Shown here: positions 31,438 through 55,023 of the stretch, piece by piece | Position numbering within the stretch: position 1 is the stretch's first letter | Layout of the letters: each line of letters begins with the position of its first letter | DNA from: Acidilutibacter cellobiosedens | GTDB lineage: Bacteria; Bacillota; Clostridia; Tissierellales; Acidilutibacteraceae | Direction of reading: 5' to 3' | NCBI RefSeq assembly: GCF_004103715.1 | Contig: NZ_CP035282.1 | Coordinates: 3,124,501 to 3,188,500 of the forward strand | Length of the DNA stretch: 64,000 nt | Program-made: the position numbers and the translations under genes | Notes under the pieces: generated by a model | Databases searched by the model: none | What the model was told of the DNA's origin: nothing | The model's input: the letters and a program-made list of their open reading frames with translations, nothing else

Positions 31438-31454
31438 ATAATTCTTCCTCTCAA

Positions 31455-31630
31455 AAATTATGTGATAACATAATAACACAAATTTATATTATTATATTAT
31501 CATTTTAAATATGAATGTTCAAGTTAAGAGTAATATGGTGAATAACCTCAATTTTATGCATTTTATTATAATTTTATTCTTTATTATTTCCCCCAATTAT
31601 ATTATAATAATGTTATTACAATCGAAAGGG
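31455..31630. promoter_or_regulatory. Divergent promoter region with GTNATNAC-type sites
   Basis: Contains TTATGTGATAACATAA on the GntR side and AATGTTATTACAAT close to the IIA ribosome site. Both share the GT-N-AT-N-AC core with sites at 36.74-36.92 kb. Confidence 0.5.
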
Positions 31631-31639
31631 TGATAACTA

Positions 31640-32074: not shown

Positions 32075-32079
32075 ATAGT

Positions 32080-32126
32080 AAAAAGGCTTCTATTAAAACA
32101 TTAATATATTCAGGAAGCCTTTTTTA
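32080..32126 (+). terminator. Terminator of the IIA gene
   Basis: AAAAAGGCTTC pairs with GAAGCCTTTTTT around an AT-rich loop. A T run completes it. Confidence 0.82.
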
Positions 32127-32173
32127 GAACCTATTTAAGACAAAGTACATATTAAGAGAAAATATAAATATAA

Positions 32174-32620
32174 TTAATCATTATTTAATCCTTTCGCACT
32201 AAAATACCAATAATAAAGTTCTTTATTTTTAGGATGGTTATATCCATTACAGCTTTCATACAACCTGCGTGCAGGTAAATTATCGGTCTGGGTGATCAGA
32301 TAAACATAATGAAGATTTTCTTTTTGGGCATATTCAAGGGCCATATTTAATAATTTTTTAGCAATCCCTTTTCTCCGATATTCTGCGGATACACATACGT
32401 GATGTATATATAACATATCATTTCCATTATCAATTCTCGGCAGTTGATAACCTAATACATAGGCAACAACATTTTCATCTTCAGCACATGCATAAATTAT
32501 ATTTCTCTTATCAGATAAAAATTTAACTGATTTCTGACAATCTACAGGTTGATGAAAAAAATTAGAAATTATTGAATTTAACTCCAACTCGTTTTTTTGA
32601 TTTAATTTTTTAAGTTCCAT
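32174..32620 (-). CDS. GNAT-family N-acetyltransferase
   Basis: Acetyl-CoA-dependent acetyltransferase. The acetyl-CoA motif is VSAEYRRKGIAKKLLNMAL, followed by LHYVYLITQTDNLPARRLYESCNGY, typical of the family. Length of 148 is normal. Its ATG overlaps the stop of the upstream SIS gene in TAATG, so the two are translationally coupled. Being coupled to a phosphosugar deaminase or deglycase, it may acetylate an amine released from the sugar, but that is inference. Confidence 0.87.
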   Translation of the reverse strand: MELKKLNQKNELELNSIISNFFHQPVDCQKSVKFLSDKRNIIYACAEDENVVAYVLGYQLPRIDNGNDMLYIHHVCVSAEYRRKGIAKKLLNMALEYAQKENLHYVYLITQTDNLPARRLYESCNGYNHPKNKELYYWYFSAKGLNND

Positions 32621-33675
32621 TATCTGGTTACAGTTTTCTTCGATACTCCTTCTGGAGCATCCGGATTATATCCTCTTGCTATAGAAAGGAGACAAGAGAA
32701 CATTTGAGAGAATATTGTACAAGAGAAAACCGCTTTTAAACCTTCATGATTAGTCGGCAATTCAATAATTTCATCAGCATCTTTTATTAAATTTTTATTG
32801 TTTGTAACAACCGTACTAAATATCTTATATTCTTTTTTAAGACGATTATATAAACTAATGATACTATCGTTTGTATGGTTATCAGCTATAAAGAAAATTG
32901 TTGGTATAAATCTTCGAGTTGCGGCAATAGGTCCATGTTGATAATCACTGGAAGCATAACATCTTGCATCTAAGTAGCTTGTTTCCTGAATTTTTAATTC
33001 TGTCTCTAACCCAAGAGCATACAATAAGCCGCGCCCAAATATAAGTATGTTACTTGCATTTCTGTAAAGAGGAATAATTTTTCTTATTTGGTCCTCAATC
33101 AACAAGGATTCACTTACAATTTCTTTCAGGTGCAATATTTCATCAATAAAATCGTTGTTATCGCTTATATAAGCAGCTAAAGCAGAAATAATCGCAAGTT
33201 GAGTGATGTATGACTTTGCTGCAGTGACACTCAGCTCAGGGCCACATTCACAGTTCATATAATAACTTCCTACTCTGGTCATTAAGGAATCTCTTACATT
33301 AGTAATACTTACACAAACTCCTCCTTGATTTTCGCATGCCTTCATTGTTTCATAAACATCTTGAGCTCCTCCCGACTGAGAAACTCCAATTAAAAGTATA
33401 TTACTATAATCAGGAATTGCCTCATAAGACGTAATAACCGACGGAGAAGCAATAGATGCCGTCATTCCACAATAGATTTCAAATAAATATTTACCTACTT
33501 GGCATGCATGCTCACTCGAACCTCTGGCAGCAAATACTACTGTATTTATTTTTCTTTTCTTTACCTCGGCTGCAATGGACTTAATCGTCTCCATATTAAA
33601 TTTAACAGCATTTTCAACTGCTCGTGGTTGTTCAAATATTTCTTTCCACATTTGAGATTTTGAAGTATCGTACAT
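32620..33675 (-). CDS. SIS-domain aminosugar-phosphate isomerase/deaminase
   Basis: Double-SIS protein related to the isomerase half of GlmS, to NagB-II/AgaS deaminases and to FrlB-type deglycases. First domain: NTVVFAARGSSEHACQVGKYL and LLIGVSQSGGAQDVYETM; second: ASNILIFGRGLLYALGLETELKIQETSY with DYQHGPIA, which carries the conserved catalytic-region histidine. Length of 351 is normal. ATG 33675 follows GGGGGATT. It lies after the IID gene with a hairpin between, and is coupled to the acetyltransferase. Substrate could be an aminosugar 6-phosphate or an Amadori compound. Confidence 0.86.
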   Translation of the reverse strand: MYDTSKSQMWKEIFEQPRAVENAVKFNMETIKSIAAEVKKRKINTVVFAARGSSEHACQVGKYLFEIYCGMTASIASPSVITSYEAIPDYSNILLIGVSQSGGAQDVYETMKACENQGGVCVSITNVRDSLMTRVGSYYMNCECGPELSVTAAKSYITQLAIISALAAYISDNNDFIDEILHLKEIVSESLLIEDQIRKIIPLYRNASNILIFGRGLLYALGLETELKIQETSYLDARCYASSDYQHGPIAATRRFIPTIFFIADNHTNDSIISLYNRLKKEYKIFSTVVTNNKNLIKDADEIIELPTNHEGLKAVFSCTIFSQMFSCLLSIARGYNPDAPEGVSKKTVTR

Positions 33676-33715
33676 TTTATAATCCCCCATCTTCTAAAGT
33701 TATTTGTATATGGAA

Positions 33716-33756
33716 TATAGAAGGCTAATCTTCAATTGAAAAGATAAGCCTTCTAT
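33716..33756 (-). terminator. Intercistronic hairpin between IID and SIS genes
   Basis: On the minus strand TATAGAAGGCTTATCTT pairs with AAGATTAGCCTTCTATA with one mismatch and a nine-base loop. It lacks a long T run, so it may be an attenuator or mRNA-stability element. Confidence 0.55.
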
Positions 33757-33766
33757 ACAAAAACAT

Positions 33767-34570
33767 CTAAAGAATTCCCAAGGCTGAACAAAGTATTGAA
33801 ACTAAGATAATCGAAACAATAAGAAGAACTATATTAACACGTTTGTTTTTCAACAGCCAATAAGTGAAAAATACAAAACCTAAAGGCAAAAGATTGGGCA
33901 AAATCTTATCAAAGAAATCTTTCTGAATCGATAAGGATGATCCTTTTGCAAGAGGAATAGAAGATAAAATATTAATACTAACATAGCTTGGAATCAATCC
34001 GCCTACTACCATTACGCCGAGAATTCCTGCTGCTTTTGTAATAGCACCGGCATTTTTACGGATTGTTGAAATTGCATTTACTCCTAAAGAATATCCAAAT
34101 CTGGCAAACCAAACTCTTGAATACCAGGCAATAAACCATATAAGCATATAAAGAATTGGACCTACAATTGAACCTTCCTGGGCTAAAGACGAACAAATAC
34201 CTGCACTAATAGGCAATAGGGTAAACCAGAATATGGCATCCCCAAGGCCTGCTAAAGGTCCAAACAATCCAACTTTTAAATTCTTAATTAAATTACGGTC
34301 TTCTCCGGCTTCTTCAAGAGATACAATTAATCCCATAAGAAATGTCCCCATATGAGGTTCCGTATTTATAAAATCCATATTATTTGTCATAGCTTTTGAA
34401 ATCTCTTCTTTATTGTCGCCATATATCTTTTTAAAGCTTGGAATCATACTGGCAGTAAACCCACCGGCCTGCATACGTTCATAATTAAATCCTGTTTGAT
34501 ACGCTGTTGAAATAATACCCAGCTTTGTAATATCCTTTTTAGATAGCTTATTTCTATATTCCCCCATCAT
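33767..34570 (-). CDS. PTS mannose-family IID component, second system
   Basis: Membrane subunit of the permease. Diagnostic segments are TAYQTGFNYERMQAGGFTASM, FINTEPHMGTFLMGLIVSLEE and GLFGPLAGLGDAIFWF. Start at ATGATG 34565-34570 after GGAGGTGAC inside the end of the IIC gene; IIC's stop lies 14 bases downstream, so the two are coupled. Length is then 266-267, the family norm; farther upstream codons lie deep within IIC. Confidence 0.92.
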   Translation of the reverse strand: MMGEYRNKLSKKDITKLGIISTAYQTGFNYERMQAGGFTASMIPSFKKIYGDNKEEISKAMTNNMDFINTEPHMGTFLMGLIVSLEEAGEDRNLIKNLKVGLFGPLAGLGDAIFWFTLLPISAGICSSLAQEGSIVGPILYMLIWFIAWYSRVWFARFGYSLGVNAISTIRKNAGAITKAAGILGVMVVGGLIPSYVSINILSSIPLAKGSSLSIQKDFFDKILPNLLPLGFVFFTYWLLKNKRVNIVLLIVSIILVSILCSALGIL

Positions 34571-35333
34571 TGTCACCTCCCGTATCACCCGGAATAATTT
34601 TGTTCTTATCGTTAACATATCCAATAATAGCAACTGCTGCTCCTGCAATTGCTATAGGCAATACATTTTGTAACGGTAAAAATGAAGCAATCAAAAATCC
34701 GATAAATAAATATCCTACATTTTCAGTTTTAAGCATGATTCTCAATAATAATCCTAAACCAACACCCGGCAATAATCCTCCTGCGACTTCAAAACCATGA
34801 ACTAACCATGCAGGGAATGAATTAACAAATGCACTGATGGGCTCCTGTATTGCATAAGCTGATAAGAAAATTACGATTGCATAAGATAAAGCAACCACAA
34901 GTCCCATCCAGGTTATAGTTCTAACAAAAGGTCCTGTTTCTCCTTTAGCAGCATAATCATCTAATTTACTCATGACTCCTGAAAATGTGGAATTAAAGAA
35001 AATATTGATATATTGCATTAAAAGTGCAAAGGGAAGAGATAATCCTAAGGCCGTAGCAACGGGTACTCCACTCGTATAAGCCAGCACTGTTGTCATGACT
35101 CCCGCAACTAACGGATTAGGTGGAACAGTGCCGCCAACCGTGGTCAGTCCAACATAGGTCAGCTCGCAAACAGCACCTGCTGCCAAACCAAGTTGTACAT
35201 CGCCAAGTATAATTCCTGTAAAAAAACATACAACGATAGGTCTGAAGATAAAAAATGCTTCCCATACGGCATCTATTCCACATATAAATGTCATCAATGC
35301 CAATAGCAGACCCTGTGATAATGTGATTTCCAT
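34554..35333 (-). CDS. PTS mannose-family IIC component, second system
   Basis: Integral membrane subunit. FFTGIILGDVQLGLAAGAVCEL and GLTTVGGTVPPNPLVAGVMTT are the conserved IIC-Man segments; about seven hydrophobic helices follow. Length of 259 is normal. GAAAGGAGAG precedes the ATG. It lies 92 nt after the IIB gene and is translationally coupled to IID. Confidence 0.92.
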   Translation of the reverse strand: MEITLSQGLLLALMTFICGIDAVWEAFFIFRPIVVCFFTGIILGDVQLGLAAGAVCELTYVGLTTVGGTVPPNPLVAGVMTTVLAYTSGVPVATALGLSLPFALLMQYINIFFNSTFSGVMSKLDDYAAKGETGPFVRTITWMGLVVALSYAIVIFLSAYAIQEPISAFVNSFPAWLVHGFEVAGGLLPGVGLGLLLRIMLKTENVGYLFIGFLIASFLPLQNVLPIAIAGAAVAIIGYVNDKNKIIPGDTGGDNDGGI

Positions 35334-35425
35334 AACTTTTCTCTCCTTTCATAATAGTTTATATTTTAAAAATTGATTTGTTTATAAAACCATAAAAAAC
35401 AAACCAATTTAGGGCCTGTTTAAAA

Positions 35426-35905
35426 CTAAATTTCAAAATCAAGCTTATGATCATTTGGAGTTATCTGTATGAAAACATCAACTCCCATATTTCGAATTGC
35501 TCTTAAATCTTCCAAATCCTTTTCATCAAGATAAACATGAACATCACGAGATACTTTTTTCCCTTCCGAATAATGCATATTTCCAATATTACACAATTTT
35601 ATAGGAACTCCTCCTTCAACAAGTTTCCTCACTGTTTCCGGAGTTCTTGCAATAATAAATATTTTCTGAGAAGGCGATGCTTTAAAAATAACATCGATAC
35701 ATTTTTGTACCGAAAAGAAACGTATTCCTACTCCAACTGATTCAGCCGTCATTTGCATCAACTCCTGTTGAATTTTATCATTCGCCGTTTCATCATCAAC
35801 AACAATCATTAAATTCGGCCGAATCGTTGTCGTCCAAGTTACACCTACCTGGCCATGTACCAGTCTGTTATCTATTCGCGTCCACAAAATATTAGGCGTT
35901 TTCAT
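35426..35905 (-). CDS. PTS mannose-family IIB component, second system
   Basis: Phosphocarrier with active histidine H17 in DNRLVHGQVGVTW and the conserved CNIGNMHYSEGKK. Length of 159 is normal. The ATG at 35905 is set by GGTGGAGA. It is downstream of deoC by 130 nt on the same strand, and upstream of IIC. The order deoC-IIB-IIC-IID-SIS-acetyltransferase reads as one unit controlled from 36.74 kb. Confidence 0.92.
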   Translation of the reverse strand: MKTPNILWTRIDNRLVHGQVGVTWTTTIRPNLMIVVDDETANDKIQQELMQMTAESVGVGIRFFSVQKCIDVIFKASPSQKIFIIARTPETVRKLVEGGVPIKLCNIGNMHYSEGKKVSRDVHVYLDEKDLEDLRAIRNMGVDVFIQITPNDHKLDFEI

Positions 35906-36035
35906 TCTCCACCACTCCCCCATAAATTAAATATATATCAATTCTACCTATAATTATATAATTAATATACATTTTTTAAAAACATTCTATATTTTCAGAT
36001 AAATATCAATTCATCAATATTATATATAGTCAAAA

Positions 36036-36722
36036 CTATTTCTGTATTCCCTTACTACTTTGATATTCTTTAATAATTTTTATACTACTTGTTGTCCCTA
36101 TTCTGGTTGCTCCTGCATCAATCATTTCTAAAAAAGTATTTAGATCACGAATTCCCCCAGCCGCTTTAATCCCAACTTCATCTTTAACAATGCTCTTCAT
36201 TAACTTAACGTCTTCAACTTTTGCTCCGCTTATTCCAAACCCGGTGGATGTCTTTATAAAATCCGGCTTTATTTTTAATGCAATTTTGCATAATTCAATA
36301 ATTTCATTTCTTTCCAAATAACAATTTTCCAATATCGCTTTTGAAATTATATTGCGGTCATGACACAAGCCCACAATAGCCTCCATTTCTTTTTCTACGT
36401 ATTTAATATTTCCATTCTTTAACTCCCCTATATTAATTACATAGTCAATCTCATCACATCCGTTATCAATGGAGTTTTTTGTTTCAAATAATTTAGTTTC
36501 TAATGTAGTTTGCCCCAAGGGAAAACTGATGGCAGCCCCTACATGTATACCAGTCTCTTTAAGTTGCTCTTTACAAAATTTTACTTGAGCTGAATTTATG
36601 GCAATCATTCCAAATCCATATTTCTTACATTCATTACAAGCCTTAGTAATTTCAAGGGATGTCGCATTTGGCTTCAATATCGTATGATCAATAATCTTAG
36701 CTATTTTTTTAACTGTTAGCAA
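36036..36722 (-). CDS. deoC: Deoxyribose-phosphate aldolase
   Basis: Class I aldolase that normally splits 2-deoxyribose-5-phosphate into glyceraldehyde-3-phosphate and acetaldehyde. IIDHTILKPNAT, CDEIDYVINIGELKNGN, KAILENCYL and the Schiff-base lysine in DFIKTSTGFG, plus GIKAAGGIRDLN, are all present. Length of 228 is normal. The start is TTG at 36722 eight bases after AGGAGG. No other deoxynucleoside genes are near; here it heads a PTS operon, so it may act on a different phosphorylated sugar. The promoter (TTGACT, 18 nt, TATAAT on the minus strand) overlaps a large palindrome at 36740-36772. Confidence 0.9.
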   Translation of the reverse strand: MLTVKKIAKIIDHTILKPNATSLEITKACNECKKYGFGMIAINSAQVKFCKEQLKETGIHVGAAISFPLGQTTLETKLFETKNSIDNGCDEIDYVINIGELKNGNIKYVEKEMEAIVGLCHDRNIISKAILENCYLERNEIIELCKIALKIKPDFIKTSTGFGISGAKVEDVKLMKSIVKDEVGIKAAGGIRDLNTFLEMIDAGATRIGTTSSIKIIKEYQSSKGIQK

Positions 36723-36739
36723 TTCAATTTCCTCCTATA

Positions 36740-36772
36740 TTGTTATATTGTAATTACATTATAATATAACAA
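36740..36772. promoter_or_regulatory. Palindromic operator overlapping the deoC -10 box
   Basis: A 33-bp imperfect palindrome with arms TTGTTATAT/ATATAACAA around TGTAATTACA. On the minus strand it contains the TATAAT box of the deoC promoter, so a bound regulator would block transcription. Confidence 0.62.
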
Positions 36773-36858
36773 TATGATTTTAGTCAATATTTTTTTAATT
36801 TATATTATTAAAATAGTTTAATTTTTCAAATTATTTTATATCATTCCCGTTTAAATAA

Positions 36859-36886
36859 TTGACATAATAAGTTATTATGTTATAAT
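36859..36886 (+). promoter_or_regulatory. Promoter of the rpe-like gene
   Basis: TTGACA, 16 nt, TATAAT. The -10 box lies within the first of two tandem operator repeats. Confidence 0.7.
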
Positions 36887-36920
36887 GAAATTACAATTAT
36901 GTTATAATGTAATTACATTG
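36877..36920 (+). repeat. Two tandem 22-bp operator repeats before the rpe-like gene
   Basis: Adjacent copies (36877-36898 and 36899-36920), 19 of 22 bases identical, each beginning ATGTTATAATG and containing AATTACA. They overlap the -10 box and extend to the ribosome site. Confidence 0.7.
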
Positions 36921-36931
36921 AGGTGATATTT

Positions 36932-37597
36932 GTGAATAAATTTATATCCCCGTCTATAATGTGCGGAGATTGGGCCAATTTTGACAAAAATATAAAATCT
37001 TTTGAAGAAAATTCAATTGATTATATTCATGTTGATATAATGGATGGAGAATTTGTTCCTAACTTTGCCTTTGGAACGGATTTTGTTAGTTATTTGCATA
37101 AAAGAACCAATATTCCTTTAGATATTCATCTAATGGTAACCAATCCAAATATTAAAATTGATTTTTTTAAATTCAATCCTAACGATATCGTTACTTTTCA
37201 TATAGAAGCAAGTCACAATCCGTTAAATACAATAAAAAAAATTCATTCGATTCCCGCAAAGGCAGGAATTGCCTTAAAACCTAAAACAGACGTTGAAACA
37301 TTGATTCCTTATATTGAACAAATAGAACTTGTTCTTATTTTAACGGTTCACCCTGGATTTGCAGGTCAAAAGCTAATACCTTATACCTTAAATAAAATAA
37401 AACAAACTCGAAAATTGGCAGATTACCTTAATCCCAATTTATTAATTGAAGTCGATGGCAACGTTAGTTTTGAAAACAGTGGTAAAATGAGTCAGCTTGG
37501 AGCAAATGTCTTTGTCGCCGGAACAAGTAGTTTGTTTAATAATGCAGATTTTAATACGAATGTCGTTAAGCTTAGAAATTCCATTATTAGAAATTAA
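36932..37597 (+). CDS. Ribulose-phosphate 3-epimerase family protein
   Basis: TIM-barrel epimerase of the Rpe/AlsE family acting on ketose phosphates. Family landmarks are SPSIMCGDWANF, HVDIMDGEFVPNFAFG (metal-binding His and Asp), DIHLMVTNP, LTVHPGFAGQ and EVDGNVSF. Length of 221 is normal. The start is GTG at 36932, seven bases after GAGGTG. Being tied to a PTS cluster rather than the pentose-phosphate pathway, it is probably an allulose-6-phosphate- or other hexulose-phosphate-type epimerase. Divergent from deoC across a doubly regulated spacer. Confidence 0.87.
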   Translation: MNKFISPSIMCGDWANFDKNIKSFEENSIDYIHVDIMDGEFVPNFAFGTDFVSYLHKRTNIPLDIHLMVTNPNIKIDFFKFNPNDIVTFHIEASHNPLNTIKKIHSIPAKAGIALKPKTDVETLIPYIEQIELVLILTVHPGFAGQKLIPYTLNKIKQTRKLADYLNPNLLIEVDGNVSFENSGKMSQLGANVFVAGTSSLFNNADFNTNVVKLRNSIIRN

Positions 37598-37682
37598 TTT
37601 TCATCTATGGAACTGTCATATATTAAAAATTAATTGAAATAATAATAAATATAATTACATGAGTATAAACGGAGGCGATATT

Positions 37683-38786
37683 ATGTCTGATAAAAAAATG
37701 ACAATGTTGGATTACGTATATGAAACACCGCAAGCAGTCAGAAATAATGTTAAAAATTCTTTTAACATTACAAAAAATTTAGTTGATCTATTTTTGAAAA
37801 AGGACTATAAAAGGCTTTGGATCATTGCATCAGGTTCATCCTACAATGCATCTCAGTGTGCAAAATTATTTATTGAAAAATATTTAAACATTGAAGTAAA
37901 GATAATTTCTCCTTTTACCTTTAATTATTACGAATCGAATTTAAAAGATGATGATTTTGCAATAGTAATATCTCAAAGCGGATGTAGTACGAATTCAATC
38001 GATTCTTTAAAAAAGTTAAACGAATTAAAGATTGAATCTATAGGGGTTACTGCAAATTTAGACAGTGATTTTAAAGATTATGCAACTCATATCATTGATT
38101 ATGGCTGCGGAATAGAAACCGTAGGTTATGTAACTAAAGGTGTAGTTACTTTGTCTGTCTTTCTTATGTTATTTTCAGTTGAGGCTTCTTATGCAAAGGG
38201 AAATCTGACATCAGAAGAAAAAGCTATGTTACTTAACCAAATTTCAGATTCAATGTCTACCTATGAGGAAATAACAAGAAACACCCTCAAATTATTCAAA
38301 GATAATTATAAATCATTTACTTCCATGACAAACGCTTATGTTTGTGGATGCGGAATTAGTTTTGGAGCAGCTCTTGAAGGGGCCTTAAAGATCGGAGAAA
38401 CAATCCAGATTCCGGCAGTTGCCTATGAGGCAGAAGAATTTTTACATGGACCAAATCTTCAACTAAATCCATTGTATACTCTCTTTTTCATTGATAATGA
38501 AGACTCAACATCTCAACGTACAATAGAAATTTATCATGCTGTACGCAGTATAACTGATCGTGCATTTATTATCACAAATAATAAAACAGTGGACGAACAA
38601 CATGCTCTGCGTTTTACTTCTCAGCCTAATCCATATCTGAAATCAATTTATACTGTTGCCTTCTTTCAAGTACTGTCCTTTATGGTTACAAACGAACTTC
38701 ATAAGTGGGAAAAGCACCCTCTATACAACAAATTTAAAACTTTAATATCATATAAAAGTAAATCATATATCGACAGAGAGTGTTAA
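37683..38786 (+). CDS. SIS-domain protein, FrlB/GfrF-like deglycase or aminosugar deaminase
   Basis: Double-SIS protein. First domain: RLWIIASGSSYNASQCAKLF and AIVISQSGCSTNSIDSLKKL; second: YVCGCGISFGAALEGALKIGET followed by EAEEFLHGPNLQLNP. The last segment, with EAEEF and HGP, resembles deglycases of fructoselysine- and glucoselysine-6-phosphate more than GlmS. Length of 367 is normal. ATG 37683 follows CGGAGGCG. It is 85 nt after the epimerase gene and in the same direction. Two different SIS enzymes in one PTS cluster recall the Salmonella gfr operon, but the substrate here is not proven. Confidence 0.84.
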   Translation: MSDKKMTMLDYVYETPQAVRNNVKNSFNITKNLVDLFLKKDYKRLWIIASGSSYNASQCAKLFIEKYLNIEVKIISPFTFNYYESNLKDDDFAIVISQSGCSTNSIDSLKKLNELKIESIGVTANLDSDFKDYATHIIDYGCGIETVGYVTKGVVTLSVFLMLFSVEASYAKGNLTSEEKAMLLNQISDSMSTYEEITRNTLKLFKDNYKSFTSMTNAYVCGCGISFGAALEGALKIGETIQIPAVAYEAEEFLHGPNLQLNPLYTLFFIDNEDSTSQRTIEIYHAVRSITDRAFIITNNKTVDEQHALRFTSQPNPYLKSIYTVAFFQVLSFMVTNELHKWEKHPLYNKFKTLISYKSKSYIDREC

Positions 38787-39171: not shown

Positions 39172-39924
39172 TCATTCCGTAATTAAATGTTTTGCCCTTT
39201 CTGAATCCCGCCAATTGCTTTGATATCCGCTCAACATGTCTACAAAACGTTTCGCCGTCAAATGAGGACGTGTAATTGCACTCCCTACAACCACAGCATG
39301 AGCACCAAGGTAAATGCATTTCATGGCATCTTCCGGAGTATATATATGGCCTTCCATTATTACATAGGCTGAATCTTTAAAATTCCTGCACATCTTTGCA
39401 AGCATACGGTAATCCGGCCCCTCGATATGAGCTGTTTCTTTAGTATATCCATATAAAGTCGGCGCCACAATATCTGCTCCATTATCAATTGCTCTTGCTG
39501 CTTCTTCATACGTCGAGATATCTGCAAGAATAATGGCTTCCGGAATTTCCTTTCTTACTATCTTTAATAAATTCCAAGCCGGCCTACCTTCATGAGTTAT
39601 CTGTGCCGTACAATCCAACGCAATAATATCCGCACCCGCTTCCCATACCTCTCTGGCAGCGTCTAAAGTAGGAGTTATAAATACATCTGTATCTTTATGC
39701 CATATCTTATACAATCCAATCATAGGCAAATCGACTTTTTCTTTAATTGCCCGAATCTGTTCAGGTGAATTGGCACGGATTCCAACGGCTCCGGCCCATT
39801 GTGCAGACTCAGCCATTTTAACCGCTATATCATCTGTATAAATCGGATCATCACGTTGTACCTGGCATGACACAATTAATCCTTTTTTCATAGAATCCAG
39901 CAGTTTTTCCTTCTTCTCGTCCAT
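39172..39924 (-). CDS. nanE: N-acetylmannosamine-6-phosphate 2-epimerase family protein
   Basis: Converts ManNAc-6-phosphate to GlcNAc-6-phosphate. GLIVSCQVQRDDPIY, AVGIRANSPEQIRAI, PMIGLYKIWHKDTDVFITPT, ADIIALDCTAQ and the late VIMEGHIYTPEDAMKCIYLGA with AVVVGSAITRP are family-typical. Length of 250 is slightly above the usual 220-235. AAGGGAG precedes the ATG. It lies 77 nt after a fructose-type PTS gene in a cluster without other sialic acid genes, so it may act on a different 2-substituted sugar phosphate. Confidence 0.88.
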   Translation of the reverse strand: MDEKKEKLLDSMKKGLIVSCQVQRDDPIYTDDIAVKMAESAQWAGAVGIRANSPEQIRAIKEKVDLPMIGLYKIWHKDTDVFITPTLDAAREVWEAGADIIALDCTAQITHEGRPAWNLLKIVRKEIPEAIILADISTYEEAARAIDNGADIVAPTLYGYTKETAHIEGPDYRMLAKMCRNFKDSAYVIMEGHIYTPEDAMKCIYLGAHAVVVGSAITRPHLTAKRFVDMLSGYQSNWRDSERAKHLITE

Positions 39925-40000: not shown

Positions 40001-41911
40001 TTAATTATAACTCTTTTCGACTTTGCTGTACTTATATTTTTTTAATGTCAAGCATATTAATGCTGTTACGGATGCGCCGGCCATCATGCATAACAGTCCA
40101 ATCAGCGGTTTATTTACTGCTCCTAACAATAATACAATGGGCCCTCCATGGGCTACCGTATCCGTAATTCCAAACAAAAATCCCATAGTACATGATACAG
40201 CAGAACCTATCATATTAGCCGGGATAACTGTAAATGGATCACTGGCAGCAAAAGGAATTGCCCCTTCTGATATTCCTACTAATCCCATAGCCAATGCTGC
40301 TTTACCATTTGCTGTTTCTTCTGATTGAAACAATCGATGTTTGCGGTCCAGAAACGTAGCTAATGCCATTCCTAAGGGAGCTACCGGAATTGCACAGGCC
40401 TGAGCTCCCATAAATTGAGGCTGACCTTCTGCAATCAATCCTACAGAAAACATAAAAGCCACTTTCCCAAATGGTCCACCCATATCAAACCCTTGCATTA
40501 ATCCAACTACAATTCCTAATATTATTAAGCTCCCTGTGGATAATCTTTGAAGCATGGCATTAAGAGCTGTCATCAGTGAAGAAATCGGCATTCCAATAAT
40601 AAATATAAAAATAAAGGCAATAAATAATGAAGCCGTAATAGGAATCAACATAATCGGTACTAAAGGCTGAATTGCTTCTGGGTATTTAAAATGTTTTAAC
40701 CACTTTACAAAGTATCCGACTAAAAGTCCTGCTATTATTGCTCCGATAAAACCGGTACCGGCAGTGGAATTATAAAAAGAACCGTTATTTGCAATCCAAC
40801 CGCCAATCATGCCCGGAGCCAATGCGGCACGATCACCGATTGCACTTGCAATATATCCAGCCAGTATAGGAATCATTAAAGTAAAACCGGTACTTCCTAC
40901 AGCAGAAATTTTATTCCAAAAACTCCCTTCCGGAATTACTAAACCATTCGGTGTCGGTTCCCCTCCTATAGCAAGAGATATGGCAATTAGTAATCCTCCT
41001 ATAACAACAAAAGGAATCATATAAGATACTCCGCTCATCAACACTTTGTACAATGATTTATGCTGTGACTCTGTGTCAGATTCTTCAAAATGGGTAACCG
41101 TTTTTTTCTGATTGTGCTTATAAATGGGTGCTTTTTTATCAAGAATTTGCATAATCAATTCTTTGGGCTCATCAATTCCTTTCTTCGCACTTGTATTTAT
41201 AACTCGTTTCCCGGCAAAACGTTCCATATCCGTTTCTCTGTCACTGGCAATAATAATTCCTTCTGCATGTTCAATCTCTTCTTTTGTCGGTGAATTTTCT
41301 ATACCAATTGAACCGTTTGTCTCTACCTTTATTGTAACTCCTATTTCATTAGCAGCTTTCTCCAATGCTTTTTGTGCTAAATAAGTATGAGCCACTCCAA
41401 CGGTACATCCTGTAACCCCTATTAAAAATCTTCCCCCTTTTCTTGTCTGATGTTCTTCCTCTATTTCTTTTGAAAATATGTCAACAACCTCTTGCTCTGT
41501 TTTTGCGCCTTTTATCTTTTGAATACAATCAGTTTCTAATAAATGAGATGTAAGATTACTTAGAATTGAAATATGCGTATCGTTTGCATTCTGAGGTATA
41601 GCAATCAAAAATATAACATAACTCAGTCTGCCCTCACCGCTGAAATCTATCCCATTACGGGATATTCCGATAGCTACTGCCGGTTTTATGACTGCTGCTG
41701 ATTTGGCATGAGGTATTGCTACACCATTGTCCAGCTCTGTTGAAACTTCTTCTTCTCGTTTTAAAACATCAGCAATATATTGGTTTTTGTCTTTAATAAT
41801 TTGTTTTGTTTCAAAAAGACCTGATAACTCTTTAATTGCTGACTTCTTGTCCTTAGATTGTAAATTGATTTTTACAAGTTCTGAGGAAAGAAATTGTGAT
41901 ATGTTTCTCAT
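40001..41911 (-). CDS. PTS fructose-family IIABC permease
   Basis: Single-chain permease and phosphotransferase. IIA occupies about 1-150, with the phospho-histidine in NGVAIPHAKSAAV; IIB about 160-255, with the cysteine in VTGCTVGVAHTYLAQKALE; IIC from about 285 to the end with some eight to ten helices (GGLLIAISLAIGG, GFIGAIIAGLLVGYF, EGAIPFAASDPFTVIPANM). Length of 636 matches FruA-type IIABC proteins. GGAGGG precedes the ATG. No fruK (1-phosphofructokinase) is adjacent, so the substrate is probably not fructose itself. Confidence 0.93.
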   Translation of the reverse strand: MRNISQFLSSELVKINLQSKDKKSAIKELSGLFETKQIIKDKNQYIADVLKREEEVSTELDNGVAIPHAKSAAVIKPAVAIGISRNGIDFSGEGRLSYVIFLIAIPQNANDTHISILSNLTSHLLETDCIQKIKGAKTEQEVVDIFSKEIEEEHQTRKGGRFLIGVTGCTVGVAHTYLAQKALEKAANEIGVTIKVETNGSIGIENSPTKEEIEHAEGIIIASDRETDMERFAGKRVINTSAKKGIDEPKELIMQILDKKAPIYKHNQKKTVTHFEESDTESQHKSLYKVLMSGVSYMIPFVVIGGLLIAISLAIGGEPTPNGLVIPEGSFWNKISAVGSTGFTLMIPILAGYIASAIGDRAALAPGMIGGWIANNGSFYNSTAGTGFIGAIIAGLLVGYFVKWLKHFKYPEAIQPLVPIMLIPITASLFIAFIFIFIIGMPISSLMTALNAMLQRLSTGSLIILGIVVGLMQGFDMGGPFGKVAFMFSVGLIAEGQPQFMGAQACAIPVAPLGMALATFLDRKHRLFQSEETANGKAALAMGLVGISEGAIPFAASDPFTVIPANMIGSAVSCTMGFLFGITDTVAHGGPIVLLLGAVNKPLIGLLCMMAGASVTALICLTLKKYKYSKVEKSYN

Positions 41912-42053: not shown

Positions 42054-42860
42054 TCAAATAAGTTCCAATCGAGTTAGCATTTTAGAAATGCCTTCTTGTT
42101 CCAATGGTTCCGTTACATAGTCTGCATGCTTTTTTAATTCTTCATTGCCGTCACCCATTGCAATTCCAATATCTGCTTCATTCAACATTTCCATGTCATT
42201 TACGTCATCGCCAAAGGCATAACTTTCCGTCAACTTGTTTCCTACATATTCTTTAATAATCCGTACTCCTTTACCTTTTGACACATTTTTCGGATAAAAG
42301 TCATAAGAATAAAATGATTGCTGTCTCAATATATTAAATTCATTTCCATATTTGCGATTAATAATGTCAAATTTCTCTTTAGTAGGAAGTATAACAATCA
42401 ATTTGTAAATCTGAAATTGTTCTAAAAACGATTTCTGCTCATCTACTGTCTTAATGAATCTACTCTCTACCGCAATATTTCGAATCAATCGTTTTCTCTC
42501 TTCCAAACTCATATTAACTGCATAACAACATTCCGGACTTTCCAATACTATGGGAATTTCATATATTTTACCGGTATTTACAATATCCACAACATATGTT
42601 TTTGAAATCGGCTTACTGTTAATTACCTCACCGTTCATTTCAATATAAGCTCCATTATTACAAATTAAAATATCCGGTTCTAATTCCAGTATGCTTTTTT
42701 GAATAAAGCATTTGGATCGTCCCGTTGCAATCGCCACATAAATACGGTTTTCTTTTAATTTCCGTATTGCCCTTATTGTTTCCGGTGTTGGTTTATGGAT
42801 ATTTTTTTCACATTTTGTTAGTGTTCCGTCAATATCAAAAAATATGATTTTTCTACCCAT
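42054..42860 (-). CDS. HAD-superfamily Cof-type phosphatase
   Basis: Sugar-phosphate phosphatase of the Cof/YidA subfamily (HAD IIB). Motif I is FFDIDGTLT with the nucleophile aspartate, motif II the threonine in IATGRS, motif III lysine in SKGKGVRII and motif IV GDDVNDMEML. A cap domain covers roughly 80-190. ATG 42860 is set by GGGGAGGTGA; length is then 268, normal. Its place between a DeoR gene and a PTS suggests it dephosphorylates the transported sugar or an intermediate. Confidence 0.9.
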   Translation of the reverse strand: MGRKIIFFDIDGTLTKCEKNIHKPTPETIRAIRKLKENRIYVAIATGRSKCFIQKSILELEPDILICNNGAYIEMNGEVINSKPISKTYVVDIVNTGKIYEIPIVLESPECCYAVNMSLEERKRLIRNIAVESRFIKTVDEQKSFLEQFQIYKLIVILPTKEKFDIINRKYGNEFNILRQQSFYSYDFYPKNVSKGKGVRIIKEYVGNKLTESYAFGDDVNDMEMLNEADIGIAMGDGNEELKKHADYVTEPLEQEGISKMLTRLELI

Positions 42861-43044
42861 AGCTATCACCTCCCCTCTCATTATACAATCTATCTATTTC
42901 AGTATAAATCTTCATAATTCGTATTATATTATTATAATTCATTTTAATTCATCAATGGCTGTAAAAAACCATCATCTTGCTTATCATATACGTAAACTCA
43001 TATTTATCACAAGCAGGATGACGGTATATTTATCATCTGCATAA

Positions 43045-43806
43045 TCAGCTGCATATAATAAAATTGTCCGGTAATTTCCTTTCTTTAGAGAACATATTCA
43101 CATACACATTTGTAAATGCACTTAACTCAGTCCATGTGCATAATGCCTTCACATTAAACTTTGAATCGTCAACTAACAGATAATTACGGTTACAACGTTT
43201 CATAGCCTCCAGTTTAACAGCACCCACCTTTACATCAAACACATATACTTCTCCTGTATCCAGATTTATACCATTTGTACTGAAAAAACCATGATCAAAA
43301 TTGAAACTGTGCAGCATATCACATGCCATAGTTCCTACGCTCATATCATAACCAAAATGGAATTCTCCTCCCAATAAATAAACTTCTTCCTGAAAGCTGG
43401 AGGGAATCTTACGTAATAAATAGGTACTTGCAGTAACAATTTTCACACGTTTTCTAAGAAGTCCTTGTATCAAATAAGCCGGTGTTGACCCTCCGTCTAT
43501 ATAAATACAATCTCCATCTTTTACATTTTCTACTGCTTTCTCACATATAATTCTTTTCGCATCTGCACTGAGGTTTTCTTTATCAACAACGGGCATTTCA
43601 TTAAAGGTAGATAAGGTCTTGGATATTTCCACTGCCGTTGCTCCGCCCCGTTCACGCTTTACCATACCGCGTTTTTCTAATTCGATCAAATCTCTATTAA
43701 TAGTTGATTTTGATACATCCAGTTCATCCATGAGCTCCTTAATTGTTACAAAGGATTTTGAATGAATAATATTCATAATATGGTATAGTCTCTCCTGTAA
43801 TAGCAT
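43045..43806 (-). CDS. DeoR-family transcriptional regulator
   Basis: Sugar-operon regulator with an N-terminal DeoR helix-turn-helix (LLQERLYHIMNIIHSKSF, then DELDVSKSTINRDLIELEKRG) and a C-terminal phosphosugar-sensing DeoRC domain (KDGDCIYIDGGSTPAYLIQGL, YLLGGEFHFGYDMSVG, YLLVDDSKF). Length of 253 is normal. ATG 43806 follows GGAGG. It lies between the glycyl-radical activase gene and the HAD gene, so it is the probable local regulator of the glycyl radical enzyme/PTS cluster. Confidence 0.9.
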   Translation of the reverse strand: MLLQERLYHIMNIIHSKSFVTIKELMDELDVSKSTINRDLIELEKRGMVKRERGGATAVEISKTLSTFNEMPVVDKENLSADAKRIICEKAVENVKDGDCIYIDGGSTPAYLIQGLLRKRVKIVTASTYLLRKIPSSFQEEVYLLGGEFHFGYDMSVGTMACDMLHSFNFDHGFFSTNGINLDTGEVYVFDVKVGAVKLEAMKRCNRNYLLVDDSKFNVKALCTWTELSAFTNVYVNMFSKERKLPDNFIICS

Positions 43807-43935: not shown

Positions 43936-44871
43936 CTAACCGCCTATTTTTACAGTTACATTGTGGACCTTTCCTATATCTATATATGACAACAATTCAC
44001 TTTTATTTACTGTAGGAATTCCTTCCATTCTATAAGGCTTTTGCATCTTCTCATATTTATTTTTACCCAAGGTATGATAGGGCAGTAAATGGACCTCCTT
44101 TACGCGGAGTTCGCTTCCCAATTTTATAATCGAAGCCAAAACATCTTTCTCATAATTAAACTTAGGAATAACAGGAACTCTTATAATAACACGTTCCTTA
44201 TAATTTTCTGCAATATAACGGAGATTATTCAATATCATATCCAAATCTCCGCCTGTTACAGATTTAAGTACCTCTTTATCCGTATGCTTTACATCAAATA
44301 GAAATGTGTCTATATATGGAATAGCCTGCTTCAGATGTGTGAGGGTACATTGTCCCGTTGTTTCAACTGCAATATTCAATGATTCCTTTTTCAATGCTTT
44401 CAACAATTCTAAAAAGCCGTCAAATTGCAGAAATGGTTCTCCACCTGATATGGTAACTCCACCACCGGTATAATCATAATAATCCTTATCCTTTTCTACT
44501 TCTGCTACAATTTCTTCCACTGTTTTTAAAATACCCGAAAACTCAATTGCTTCATTGAAACAATTGGAGACGCATTGTTTGCAATGGATACACTTTTCTT
44601 TATCATAAGAAAAATGTTCTTCACAAAACGTAATTGCATGGGTCGGACAAACCTGTACGCACCTATGACAGTGCACACATTTCTTTTTGGTATAAAACAA
44701 ATGTGAATCCATACACTGAGATTCCGGATTTGAACACCAAGGACAGTGAAGGGGACACCCTTGCATAAATACAACAGTGCGTATACCCTCACCGTCATGA
44801 GTTGCAAACTTTTCTATATTGAATATTTTAATTTTATTGATATGATGCTCTAAATTAATATCACTTCTCAT
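43936..44871 (-). CDS. Glycyl-radical enzyme activating enzyme (radical SAM)
   Basis: Generates the glycyl radical on the partner enzyme encoded just upstream. The radical-SAM cluster motif is CPLHCPWC (Cx3Cx2C), and two further 4Fe-4S sets follow as CVHCHRCVQVCP and CIHCKQCVSNC, the ferredoxin-like insert seen in activases of non-PFL glycyl radical enzymes. TGGGVTISGGEPFLQ is the SAM-binding motif. Length of 311 is typical. The start ATG lies two bases after the stop of the glycyl radical enzyme gene, so the pair is coupled. Confidence 0.93.
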   Translation of the reverse strand: MRSDINLEHHINKIKIFNIEKFATHDGEGIRTVVFMQGCPLHCPWCSNPESQCMDSHLFYTKKKCVHCHRCVQVCPTHAITFCEEHFSYDKEKCIHCKQCVSNCFNEAIEFSGILKTVEEIVAEVEKDKDYYDYTGGGVTISGGEPFLQFDGFLELLKALKKESLNIAVETTGQCTLTHLKQAIPYIDTFLFDVKHTDKEVLKSVTGGDLDMILNNLRYIAENYKERVIIRVPVIPKFNYEKDVLASIIKLGSELRVKEVHLLPYHTLGKNKYEKMQKPYRMEGIPTVNKSELLSYIDIGKVHNVTVKIGG

Positions 44872-44873
44872 CT

Positions 44874-47141
44874 TTAGCCATACAACTCCCTGCTTAATAA
44901 TTCTTCTTGTACATCCGGCATTAAATCTACAAATACTGCACTGTACCCTGCCACTCTTACAAGCAAATCCGGATATTTTTGAGGATGTTTCTGTGCATCT
45001 TCCAACACCCCATGATCAACCACCGTTACCATCAATTGGCACCCTCCCTTCTTAAAATATACATCAAAGAGAGCCTTTACCTTTTCTTTATCTTCTTTCA
45101 TCATATGGGGTGTAAATCTAATATTCTGTACGCTTCCTCCGTGATACCTGGCTTTAAATCTCGACAGAGAATTGAGGACCGCCGTCGGACCGCTTTTGGC
45201 AGCACCACCTTGAGGATTATTGGCCGGATTCATATATTGTCCTTTTCGTCTTCCATCTAAAGAAGCACTTGTCTTATGTCCCCAGTCTGTATTTGTTTGA
45301 TTGTTACTGATTACAATTAAATAATATCCCATTCCTTTACCAATTCCTCTCTGCCTGATACCCTTAGCCACAAACTCATACAAATCGTTGGCAAGATCAT
45401 CACATTCTTTATGATCATTACCGTACTTCGGAACATCCAAGAGTTCCTTTCTGATTTTTTCGTACCCTACAAAATCATGCAATGCCGCTTCATTCAACTC
45501 CTTCAGAGTGTATTTCTCCTGATCAAAGACCAGGCTCTTAATTGCATACAGTGCGTCTGACGCATTGATATTTCCATAGGTTTCATTTGTTCCGCCTAAA
45601 ATTTCCACTCCTCCGTCAAGCAATGCTTTCCCTCTGTCAATACAGTCATCCATCAAAATACTCGTAAATAAAAACGACACTTCCTTATTCATCACTTCAT
45701 AACTATGATACTGAGCCTCTATACTTAAATCAAAATAGTAATCCAATAGTTCTTTATATTGACTATAAAATTCTTCAAAAGTCCTGTATTCGTCCAGCGG
45801 TTTTATATGGATAGGTCCCCCCTTATAAATACCATCCATGGGATCTATACCTTTATTCAAAGTTATATTCAGCAATTTCAGTAAATTCAACAATGTATTG
45901 GGGGTACCGACACTTTTTCCTTGGATAACAAATTCACCGCACCCGAAAGGTACATATTGCTGAGCCGTTTTTTTATCAAGTCTCATAGCATATTCTACTG
46001 CCGGAACATTTACTTCATCATTATAAAGGGTAGGATAAGTAGCTCCGGAAGAAATACAATCGTAAGCCATATCCTTAATATCCTCAGGTGTATCTTTATA
46101 TAAACGCAGCGTAAACTGAGGCTCTACATATCTTGTATTTTTACATACTTTGAGGCAAATCCTTGTAAACAAATCTGCGCCTTCCACATCATCGCGCCCT
46201 TCTCCTCCCACAATAATACGTCCGTTAACCGTCGTACGGCGATTTTCAATCATCCACCACAAAGATTTTAAATAGCGGTATGCATCTTCTTCTGTAATTA
46301 TCCCTTCATCAATATCACGCTTTAAATAAGTACCTAATATATCATCCAATCTTCCATAATTAATTACACCGGCACATAAGGCATAAATCCAAAATAGCTG
46401 TAATGCTTGATGAAAGGTATGAGGCGGTTCTTCACGAATTGCATCTAAATCTTTAAACATAAGGTCCAATTCTTTCTTACGTTCCGTATTTGCAGAAGGT
46501 ATTTTCTCCAAAACCAATTCCTTTTGTCGGTCTATCACATCTTTTAAAAGGTTTAATGCTTCTATAGAACAAGAAAGAAACTCATTCTGGGGTTTCAATT
46601 GAATTATCCGAATTAAACCGTTAATACCATATTTCATCAATCTTTTATAATTCAGCATCATGCCGCTTAGACGTGCTGTAGCCATTAAAGGATAATTACA
46701 ATCTATAAATCGTCCCGTTGTTGTATCATTCAATACATCTTGGCAATAGATTGACTTAATATCATGATCCTGCCAATAATCATATAGAACATCTACTCTA
46801 TTCTTCTCATCCTCAGTACTTAACAGTTCTTTAAACTCCCTCAGTTTATGGAATACACAGTAATGTCCCACTCCTCCGATGCTTGTAGTACTTCCAAAAC
46901 CAATGGGAAGATAATCAAGTCTTCCTGCTATTAAGTCCGTATCTTCAATAGAACGGAACAATACGGGAAATATGGTTTTAAGACAATTCAATTCACGCCT
47001 TGCCTTATCAAGTTTTTCACTTTCTTTATAAGCTTTCGTATATGCTTCCATAATTTCAAGTTGTTGTTTTAGCGGTTTTTCACAGGGTATTTTTTTACTT
47101 ACTTCTACGTTTTGTTCTCCGTCAATATTAATCCTTGCCAT
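44874..47141 (-). CDS. Glycyl radical enzyme of unassigned substrate (Cys in a GCGE motif)
   Basis: Oxygen-sensitive radical enzyme of the PFL/diol-dehydratase superfamily. The glycyl radical loop is LLVRVAGYSAVF with G732, 23 residues from the C terminus, and the thiyl cysteine is C401 in YVPFGCGEFVIQG. Most eliminating members show GCVE here, while pyruvate formate-lyase has a Cys-Cys pair; GCGE is distinct. Length of 755 is shorter than glycerol dehydratase (about 787). LDGRRKGQYMNPANNPQGG is the usual late conserved segment. The neighbours are an activase, DeoR, a HAD phosphatase, a fructose-type PTS and NanE, pointing to a phosphorylated sugar or polyol derivative as substrate. AGGAAGGAG precedes the ATG. 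Confidence 0.88.
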   Translation of the reverse strand: MARINIDGEQNVEVSKKIPCEKPLKQQLEIMEAYTKAYKESEKLDKARRELNCLKTIFPVLFRSIEDTDLIAGRLDYLPIGFGSTTSIGGVGHYCVFHKLREFKELLSTEDEKNRVDVLYDYWQDHDIKSIYCQDVLNDTTTGRFIDCNYPLMATARLSGMMLNYKRLMKYGINGLIRIIQLKPQNEFLSCSIEALNLLKDVIDRQKELVLEKIPSANTERKKELDLMFKDLDAIREEPPHTFHQALQLFWIYALCAGVINYGRLDDILGTYLKRDIDEGIITEEDAYRYLKSLWWMIENRRTTVNGRIIVGGEGRDDVEGADLFTRICLKVCKNTRYVEPQFTLRLYKDTPEDIKDMAYDCISSGATYPTLYNDEVNVPAVEYAMRLDKKTAQQYVPFGCGEFVIQGKSVGTPNTLLNLLKLLNITLNKGIDPMDGIYKGGPIHIKPLDEYRTFEEFYSQYKELLDYYFDLSIEAQYHSYEVMNKEVSFLFTSILMDDCIDRGKALLDGGVEILGGTNETYGNINASDALYAIKSLVFDQEKYTLKELNEAALHDFVGYEKIRKELLDVPKYGNDHKECDDLANDLYEFVAKGIRQRGIGKGMGYYLIVISNNQTNTDWGHKTSASLDGRRKGQYMNPANNPQGGAAKSGPTAVLNSLSRFKARYHGGSVQNIRFTPHMMKEDKEKVKALFDVYFKKGGCQLMVTVVDHGVLEDAQKHPQKYPDLLVRVAGYSAVFVDLMPDVQEELLSRELYG

Positions 47142-55018: not shown

Positions 55019-55023
55019 TCATT

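What the first reader, a model, noticed from the sequence alone, without database searches (positions are those of the whole stretch)
43936..47141. Glycyl radical enzyme with a GCGE active-site motif in a sugar PTS cluster
The thiyl-cysteine loop reads FGCGEFVIQG instead of the GCVE of most eliminases, and the genetic context (activase, DeoR, HAD phosphatase, fructose-type PTS, NanE) points to a phosphorylated sugar or polyol. Glycyl radical lyases acting on 1,5-anhydrohexitol-6-phosphates have been reported, and this enzyme may belong to or near that type, or be new. The changed loop implies a different substrate-pocket geometry.
Basis: partly seen in the sequence, partly recalled or inferred. 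Interest (0 to 1): 0.65.

Follow-up and report, generated by a model that had tools for sequence, protein, structure and literature searches.

The report
New radical enzyme with epimerase partner
The gene encodes a glycyl radical enzyme of an uncharacterised family, found scattered through gut-type anaerobes and usually beside its own specialised sugar-phosphate epimerase, so it probably belongs to an unknown radical route for breaking down a phosphorylated sugar.

Summary
In detail: window 44874-47141 (-) is an intact 755-aa glycyl radical enzyme (GRE; C401, E403, radical Gly732) followed after 2 bases by its radical-SAM activase. GCGE itself is minor: of 73 orthologs 24 have GCGE and 49 GCTE. 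The larger finding is elsewhere. The protein belongs to a deep, uncharacterised GRE family, about 26% identical to the 1,5-anhydrohexitol-6-phosphate lyases YbiW and PflD, and separated in my tree from YbiW, PflD, CutC, HypD and an HpfG-like row by a fully supported long branch. It lacks a pocket histidine and two stretches those enzymes have. The host carries a separate YbiW-type GRE. The neighbour called NanE is a distinct subfamily (56 of 56 keep the NanE catalytic residues; 56 of 56 share other substitutions) that follows this GRE: 48 of 53 well-flanked loci, on either side of it. A ROK kinase is in 25 of 53; the fructose-type PTS only in the window. Best reading: kinase or PTS makes a hexose-6-phosphate, the NanE-like enzyme flips C2, and the GRE breaks a C-O or C-N bond. 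The substrate is not shown; clues split between amino sugar and anhydro sugar. An anhydrohexitol assignment is not supported by sequence.

The parts
44874..47141 (-). Glycyl radical enzyme, 755 aa: thiyl C401, E403, radical Gly732
43936..44871 (-). GRE activase, radical SAM with two ferredoxin-type cluster motifs, 311 aa
   Evidence: present in 53 of 53 well-flanked loci
43045..43806 (-). DeoR-family regulator; ORF listed from TTG at 43884, likely ATG start at 43806
   Evidence: DeoR in 24 of 53 loci
42054..42881 (-). HAD-IIB (Cof-type) phosphatase
   Evidence: only 4 of 53 loci
40001..41911 (-). Fructose-type PTS EIIABC, nearest model 2-O-mannosylglycerate PTS (375.5 bits, cut-off 763)
   Evidence: 1 of 53 loci, the window
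39172..39924 (-). NanE-like sugar-phosphate 2-epimerase, dedicated subfamily (K73, E191, D135, R50, Q21, R219)
   Evidence: near the GRE in 48 of 53 loci
30694..38786 (.). Neighbouring cluster, membership uncertain: GntR, two SIS proteins, galactosamine-like mannose-family PTS IID (33767-34648) with IIC, DeoC (36036-36722), Rpe-like (36923-37597)
   Evidence: GntR and DeoC families also near the GRE or NanE-like gene in L015, L017 and L137

Best explanation
A glycyl radical C-O (or C-N) lyase of an uncharacterised GRE family, working in a short anaerobic sugar pathway. A PTS (window) or a ROK kinase (many other loci) gives a hexose-type 6-phosphate. The NanE-like TIM-barrel enzyme inverts C2 of the open-chain aldose phosphate, by deprotonation with Lys73 and substrate-assisted reprotonation with Glu191. 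In the GRE the activase makes a radical on Gly732, which passes to Cys401; the thiyl takes a hydrogen from a carbinol carbon of the sugar phosphate, Glu403 acts as acid/base, the neighbouring C-O or C-N bond breaks, and hydrogen is returned. SHOWN by sequence: radical machinery, family separation, the epimerase subfamily and its linkage. INFERRED: eliminase chemistry from Cys-x-Glu, the 6-phosphate from the partners, the order of steps. NOT SHOWN: the substrate. My first guess is a C2-substituted hexose-6-phosphate, quite possibly an amino sugar.
For: C401 and E403 kept in 73 of 73 orthologs and Gly732 present. NanE-like gene within 6 kb in 48 of 53 well-flanked loci and 67 of 82 in all, upstream in 42, downstream in 23, divergent in 2. 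Of five well-flanked loci without it, two genomes carry it elsewhere. Among 196 class genomes only the window's has this NanE-like subfamily. All six NanE catalytic or binding residues in 56 of 56 (residues from PMC8482478). ROK kinase in 25 of 53; the one scanned is glucokinase-like. R301, R302 and R308 in 73 of 73 orthologs could bind a phosphate (inference).
Against: No activity is known. Five of 53 well-flanked loci lack the NanE-like gene; three of those genomes (L016, L036, L076) have no copy of the subfamily. A phosphorylating partner (ROK, fructose PTS or mannose PTS) was seen within 6 kb in only 28 of 53 loci. The loci are related, so the counts are not independent. C-x-E also occurs in decarboxylases (recalled), so eliminase chemistry is not certain.
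Confidence: 0.5

Rival explanations
1. A third anhydrohexitol-6-phosphate lyase: the GRE ring-opens another 1,5-anhydrohexitol-6-phosphate to a 1-deoxyketose phosphate, and the NanE-like enzyme epimerises or cleaves the product in place of FSA.
For: Kinase or PTS plus GRE plus one TIM-barrel partner mirrors E. coli ybiYW/fsaA and frw-pflDC/fsaB. A PflD-type GRE with FSA lies next to the cluster in L015. Gfo/Idh/MocA enzymes in 15 and 3-keto-disaccharide hydrolases in 6 of 53 loci, one Gfo nearest to DgpA in the PDB, GH31 in L044.
Against: About 26% identity to YbiW and PflD and separation in the tree; pocket histidine and two stretches missing; the host already has a YbiW-type GRE; a 1-deoxyketose has no aldehyde next to C2, which NanE chemistry needs. 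The L090 Gfo scores 154 bits to unassigned oxidoreductases and 56.7 to 1,5-anhydrofructose reductase.
Confidence: 0.2
2. Sub-case of the best reading: an amino-sugar lyase. The NanE-like enzyme interconverts ManN(Ac)-6P and GlcN(Ac)-6P type sugars, and the GRE removes nitrogen or another substituent of an amino-sugar 6-phosphate.
For: Both acetamide-contact aromatics of NanE (Tyr149, Phe72) kept in 56 of 56. In L138 the NanE-like gene is co-directional with a glucosamine/galactosamine-6-phosphate deaminase-like gene, ROK and DeoR. It is next to an ordinary NanE in L137. A mannose-family PTS follows the GRE operon in L039, and a galactosamine-like IID lies in the window. C-N cleavage by GREs is known (CutC, recalled).
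Against: NagA/NagB-type routes already handle common amino sugars; no deaminase gene was noted in the GRE loci whose neighbours I annotated; mannose-family PTS within 6 kb in only 2 of 53 loci; the NanE signature is broken in 56 of 56.
Confidence: 0.15
3. Radical chemistry of another kind (C-C cleavage, decarboxylation or addition) on a sugar-derived acid or aryl glycoside.
For: The pocket differs from the eliminases compared here; loci with GH94-like (11 of 53), alpha-rhamnosidase (L069) and GH1/GH16 genes (L075) point to plant glycosides.
Against: Cys-x-Glu is kept; HPAD and IAD models score lower than the eliminases (182.6 and 188 bits); a kinase and a NanE-like enzyme suit a sugar phosphate better.
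Confidence: 0.1
4. A relative of a characterised GRE (glycerol or propanediol dehydratase, CutC, HypD, sulfonate lyases) that merely sits in a sugar operon.
For: Nearest solved structure by sequence is B12-independent glycerol dehydratase, 227 bits.
Against: NCBIfam equivalog scores are far under their cut-offs (best 259.7 against 1100); the model is about equally far from many GREs; the tree separates the types included.
Confidence: 0.05

Closest known systems
YbiW and PflD, 1,5-anhydroglucitol- and 1,5-anhydromannitol-6-phosphate lyases of E. coli
   Same: GRE plus activase, PTS or kinase context, sugar-like 6-phosphate expected, Cys-x-Glu loop
   Different: About 26% identity, separated by the longest branch of the tree, GCGE/GCTE for GCIE/GCVE, no pocket histidine, two stretches missing, NanE-like partner instead of FSA
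B12-independent glycerol dehydratase (1r8w)
   Same: Best PDB score by sequence, 227 bits; same fold, Z 35.5
   Different: The segment around its His164 and the GHS segment are changed (their role is recalled); sugar operon
[quoted passage not shown]
   Same: All six active-site residues and both acetamide-contact aromatics
   Different: About 41% identity; signature X-P-X-I-G-I-X-K-Z broken in 56 of 56; Q23, P155, Y158 and H193 in 56 of 56 and M190 in 55 of 56; extra C-terminal stretch; linked to a GRE

Membership tests
Glycyl radical enzymes | Glycyl radical motif, active-site cysteine, radical-SAM activase gene | tested here: met
   G732 in RVAGYSA, C401, adjacent activase with CxxxCxxC
GRE eliminases | Cys-x-Glu loop | tested here: met
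   C401 and E403 in 73 of 73 orthologs
GRE eliminases | Pocket histidine (aspartate in CutC) and ESNGHS-type segment | tested here: not met
   Gly160 at the His column; six residues fewer than YbiW at the ESNGHS segment; their functional role is recalled
AG6P/AM6P lyases (YbiW, PflD) | Clustering with YbiW or PflD | tested here: not met
   the PflD model NF007437 scores 206 against 1109
AG6P/AM6P lyases (YbiW, PflD) | FSA aldolase beside the GRE | tested here: not met
   FSA in 1 of 82 loci, there within a PflD-type cluster
AG6P/AM6P lyases (YbiW, PflD) | Activity on AG6P or AM6P | not testable with these tools
   needs the activated enzyme
HypD, CutC, HpsG/HpfG, HPAD, IAD, PFL | NCBIfam equivalog cut-off | tested here: not met
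Glycerol and propanediol dehydratases | Equivalog model or tree position | tested here: inconclusive
   no equivalog model appeared; the only row of that type in the tree is one I call glycerol-dehydratase-like from its loop
NanE (partner) | Gln11, Arg40, Lys63, Asp124, Glu180, Arg208 of S. aureus NanE | tested here: met
   56 of 56
NanE (partner) | Signature X-P-X-I-G-I-X-K-Z with basic Z | tested here: not met
   Leu for Ile in 56 of 56; Z is I 41, V 14, Q 1
NanE (partner) | ManNAc-6P epimerase activity | not testable with these tools
   needs an assay

The most novel reading that the evidence does not exclude
A further radical sugar-degradation route, besides the anhydroglucitol and anhydromannitol routes, spread partly by horizontal transfer among gut-type anaerobes: a dedicated C2 epimerase and a new-family GRE together open a hexose- or hexosamine-6-phosphate by radical bond cleavage, a reaction I know of for no GRE.
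Probability: 0.3. Interest if true: 0.8.

Novelty: new variant of a known kind. Interest (0 to 1): 0.6.

Why it matters
GREs carry out some of the hardest reactions of the anaerobic gut, and newly assigned families have revealed unsuspected nutrients (choline, hydroxyproline, taurine, anhydroglucitol; partly recalled). Here a whole family, found in Bacillota, Bacteroidota and Treponema and in named species such as Parabacteroides distasonis and Thomasclavelia saccharogumia, comes with a dedicated partner enzyme and often a kinase, which narrows the substrate to a small, testable panel. It also warns that genes annotated as NanE are not all sialic-acid or ManNAc enzymes: the only clear NanE-family gene of this genome is of this other kind.

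Tried and rejected
Rejected: (a) the G of GCGE as the key novelty, because T is commoner among orthologs. (b) The fructose PTS as a conserved partner: 1 of 53 loci. (c) The HAD: 4 of 53. (d) A direct AG6P/AM6P assignment (see rivals). (e) My first thought that the NanE-like enzyme had lost its acetamide pocket: the contacts named in PMC8482478 are kept. (f) That the 34-42% relatives share the pathway: in the six stretches examined (L009-L014, some short) no neighbour matched the NanE-like cluster, so I use them as an outgroup. (g) GH94-like proteins as conserved: 11 of 53; the model of one (pLDDT 79) matches GH94 phosphorylases. (h) DeoC as a core gene: 5 of 82 loci within 6 kb, only 2 of them at 56-59% identity; the window's own DeoC is about 8 kb from the GRE.

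Led nowhere: papers on this family or its link to NanE. Searches found none; one found one (PMC12441222); of 8, 41, 88 and 103 I saw 13 of 13, 15 of 18, 10 of 32 and 8 of 170 listings; one found one (PMC9815643, listing only). In PMC8950772 only two reference-list passages were seen. The library holds open-licence papers only. The structure search of the GRE model ranks no function first; families absent from its list are not thereby excluded. A search centred on another order was not possible.

Weak points: the tree is a quick one with SH-aLRT support only, drawn with a midpoint root, with 26 of 73 orthologs and no PFL, HPAD, BSS or IslA rows. Rows dropped: orthologs under 735 aa (73 used, from 82 loci); L004, cut by its contig end, not in the tree; L006 was translated on the wrong strand and is not used; the second GRE of L015 was first counted as ortholog no. 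74 and is PflD-type. The loci were found by two peptide patterns; the best 80 of 95 relatives were kept, and the window and L008 added. One search uses 56 NanE-like sequences of at least 235 aa; one search finds the gene in 67 loci by tblastn. In one search I scanned the wrong ORF of L134 (an Rpe-like one), so only one of the two TAL/FSA genes is confirmed as FSA. ROK kinases other than that of L090 are known only by similarity to the representatives.
Full report
What is there. Window 44874-47141 (-) encodes a 755-aa protein with a PFL-like domain (408.7 bits) and a glycyl radical domain (91.7 bits). The thiyl loop is QYVPFGCGEFVIQGKS with C401 and E403, the radical site is Gly732 in RVAGYSA, an AGGAAGGAG stretch precedes the start, and the activase (43936-44871) begins 2 bases after the stop. 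Downstream on the same strand lie a DeoR regulator, a HAD-IIB phosphatase, a fructose-type PTS EIIABC and a NanE-family protein.

Which GRE it is. The NCBIfam equivalogs listed are far from their cut-offs; the best, hydroxyproline dehydratase, scores 259.7 against 1100, and the PFL2-3 subfamily model scores 302 against 678. The nearest solved protein by sequence is glycerol dehydratase at 227 bits. Identity to YbiW is 26.6% over 689 and to PflD 25.8% over 774 aligned positions. In a 51-row tree (quick, SH-aLRT) 26 members of the family and 4 distant relatives form one side of the longest inner branch, with support 100 on both sides; the other side holds YbiW and PflD of E. coli, rows over the NCBIfam cut-offs for CutC, HypD and PflD, and an HpfG-like row at 986.7 bits, just under its cut-off of 1000. 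HPAD, BSS, IslA and PFL are not in the tree; their profile or PDB scores are lower than those of glycerol dehydratase and HypD. A structure model (pLDDT 86) is about equally far from many solved GREs: Z 38.7 for an unassigned Archaeoglobus GRE, 34.9 for YbiW with AG6P, 34.8-35.3 for PflD, 35.5 for glycerol dehydratase, 27-31 for PFL, at 20-26% identity.

What differs in the protein. In an alignment with nine other GREs the family has ARLSGMML where YbiW (GDAH), PflD (GQGH), the glycerol-dehydratase-like, HypD and HpfG-like rows have a histidine and CutC an aspartate; Gly160 stands at that column. It is six residues shorter than YbiW at the segment that reads ESNGHS there, and 13 residues shorter at the loop that reads SGSHSKASAGSPL. 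Beside the second gap stands ENRRTTVNGR; R301, R302 and R308 are present in 73 of 73 orthologs, R301 and R308 also in both distant rows compared. I infer, without structure, that this could be an anion site. The residue between C401 and E403 is T in 49 and G in 24 of 73 orthologs. So GCGE is real but is among the smaller differences.

Who has it. In whole-genome searches the gene is rare: 1 of 249 genomes of the window's order (E up to 1e-150); 6 of 391 of the class at E up to 1e-90, the five others at 34-42% identity; 1 of 299 of the phylum at E up to 1e-200; each time the one is the window's own. A pattern-based scan of 84,980 species genomes returned 95 relatives; the best 80 are 58-79% identical and come from Erysipelotrichales, other Bacillota, Bacteroidota and Treponema; a Parabacteroides distasonis record adds one at 63%. 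In the tree the window's protein nests among Erysipelotrichales sequences, and Peptacetobacter hominis has one at 77%, while the window's own order otherwise lacks close orthologs; this suggests horizontal transfer (inference).

The partner. Of 82 loci (80, the window and L008), 53 have at least 3 kb on both sides of the GRE. Of these 53, within 6 kb, 53 have the activase, 48 the NanE-like gene, 25 a ROK kinase, 24 a DeoR and 20 an AraC regulator, 15 a Gfo/Idh/MocA enzyme, 11 a GH94-like protein, 6 a 3-keto-disaccharide hydrolase, 4 the HAD, 2 a mannose-family PTS and 1 the fructose PTS; 28 of 53 have a ROK kinase or one of these PTSs. Over all 82 loci, many of them cut by contig ends, the NanE-like gene is found in 67: upstream in 42, downstream in 23 and divergent in 2, so the association has survived rearrangement. 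Five well-flanked loci lack it (L016, L018, L036, L037, L076); of their genomes, two hold it elsewhere at 80% and 74% identity, two hold only NanE at about 40%, and one has no match (seven genomes searched, two of them as positive controls). Among 196 genomes of the class only the window's has this subfamily; 12 others have NanE at 36-46%. It is the only clear NanE-family gene of the window's genome; a second hit of 29.5 bits just passes the Pfam cut-off of 27 and is probably another TIM-barrel protein. The loci are related to each other, so the counts are not independent events.

What the partner does. The 56 NanE-like sequences compared are a tight group (median 72% identity; 40-42% to three solved NanEs). 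Of the residues that Currie et al. (PMC8482478; abstract, outline and passages seen) name in S. aureus NanE, the six active-site residues and the two aromatics near the acetamide (Tyr149, Phe72) are kept in 56 of 56. The published signature X-P-X-I-G-I-X-K-Z is broken in 56 of 56, and Q23, P155, Y158 and H193 are invariant where the three solved NanEs have other letters; W75 (53 of 56) and M190 (55 of 56) behave likewise. I read this as the same C2 proton chemistry on a related but different sugar phosphate (inference).

Clues to the substrate. Kinase: the one scanned (L090) is glucokinase-like, 253.6 bits against a cut-off of 260.35. For amino sugars: in L138, from a Lachnospiraceae genome whose GRE locus (L037) is on another contig, the NanE-like gene is co-directional with a glucosamine/galactosamine-6-phosphate deaminase-like gene, ROK, DeoR and sugar ABC genes; in Breznakia (L137) it is next to an ordinary NanE; a mannose-family PTS follows the GRE operon in L039, and a galactosamine-like IID lies at window 33767-34648. 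For anhydro sugars: Gfo/Idh/MocA enzymes, one of which (L049) is nearest in the PDB to DgpA while another (L090) is nearest to unassigned ones; 3-keto-disaccharide hydrolases and a GH31 in Bacteroidota loci; and a PflD-type GRE with FSA beside the cluster in L015. For a deoxy-aldose product: DeoC about 8 kb from the GRE in the window, within 6 kb in L015 and L017, and beside the NanE-like gene in L137. ROK, DeoR, ABC and AraC names in L138 and L137 are partly my reading of the sequences. These clues do not agree on one substrate.

How it most likely works. The PTS or kinase makes a hexose-type 6-phosphate; the NanE-like enzyme sets the configuration at C2; the thiyl radical at C401 takes a carbinol hydrogen, E403 assists, and a neighbouring C-O or C-N bond is lost. 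Shown by sequence: the radical machinery, the epimerase site and their linkage. Inferred: chemistry, order, phosphate. Unknown: the sugar. YbiW and PflD are the nearest precedent in kind: they cleave 1,5-anhydroglucitol-6-phosphate and 1,5-anhydromannitol-6-phosphate to 1-deoxyfructose-6-phosphate (Ma et al. 2024, doi 10.1021/jacs.4c07718, not seen; reported in passages of PMC12441222; solved complexes named). The host has its own YbiW-type GRE beside a divergent DeoR-like gene, an activase and a lactose/cellobiose-family PTS IIC and an FSA elsewhere, so a second enzyme for the same compound would be redundant.

Novelty. I found no paper that describes this family or its link to NanE (searches; open-licence papers only, part of the listings seen). 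It is a new variant of a known kind: a GRE by its radical features, outside the characterised GRE groups tested, with a dedicated epimerase.

Noticed in passing
window 48275-48511 and 48565-50133; 60433-62445: A 5' fragment of a thioredoxin-domain gene (PF03190) ends beside a large serine recombinase; a second PF03190 copy lies at about 60.4-62.4 kb with stops in its frame, 75% identical over 155 bases. A mobile element may lie between them.
   Followed up: partly
window 30694-38786: Cluster with galactosamine-like PTS IID, two SIS proteins, DeoC and an Rpe-like epimerase next to the GRE cluster; possibly amino-sugar or Amadori-product use, possibly part of the same pathway.
   Followed up: partly
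window 53279-57561: A DNA methyltransferase-like gene and an 845-aa gene without NCBIfam match follow each other; looks like a restriction-modification pair (my reading).
   Followed up: no
L132 (own genome C1:722000-741000): A second GRE of YbiW type with activase, divergent DeoR-like gene and lactose/cellobiose-family PTS IIC: a likely anhydroglucitol locus in the same genome.
   Followed up: partly
L015:13245-19167: A PflD-type GRE (1117 bits, cut-off 1109) with activase and FSA directly beside the GRE/NanE-like cluster.
   Followed up: partly
L009:14227-17208 and L097:5797-10607: In Persicobacter a phytanoyl-CoA dioxygenase family gene precedes a distant GRE; in E. coli ybiU (DUF1479) lies near ybiW. 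Oxygen-dependent and radical enzymes for one compound?.
   Followed up: no
class-wide GRE search: Many Clostridia genomes hold GREs that match the PFL2-3 profile only from about position 155, at roughly 300-450 bits, suggesting further unassigned GRE families.
   Followed up: no
L059:7026-9260 and ten other genes: A GH94-like family with only 47 Pfam bits, whose predicted structure matches cellobiose phosphorylases; some Bacteroidota members begin with signal-peptide-like sequences (my reading), odd for a phosphorylase.
   Followed up: partly
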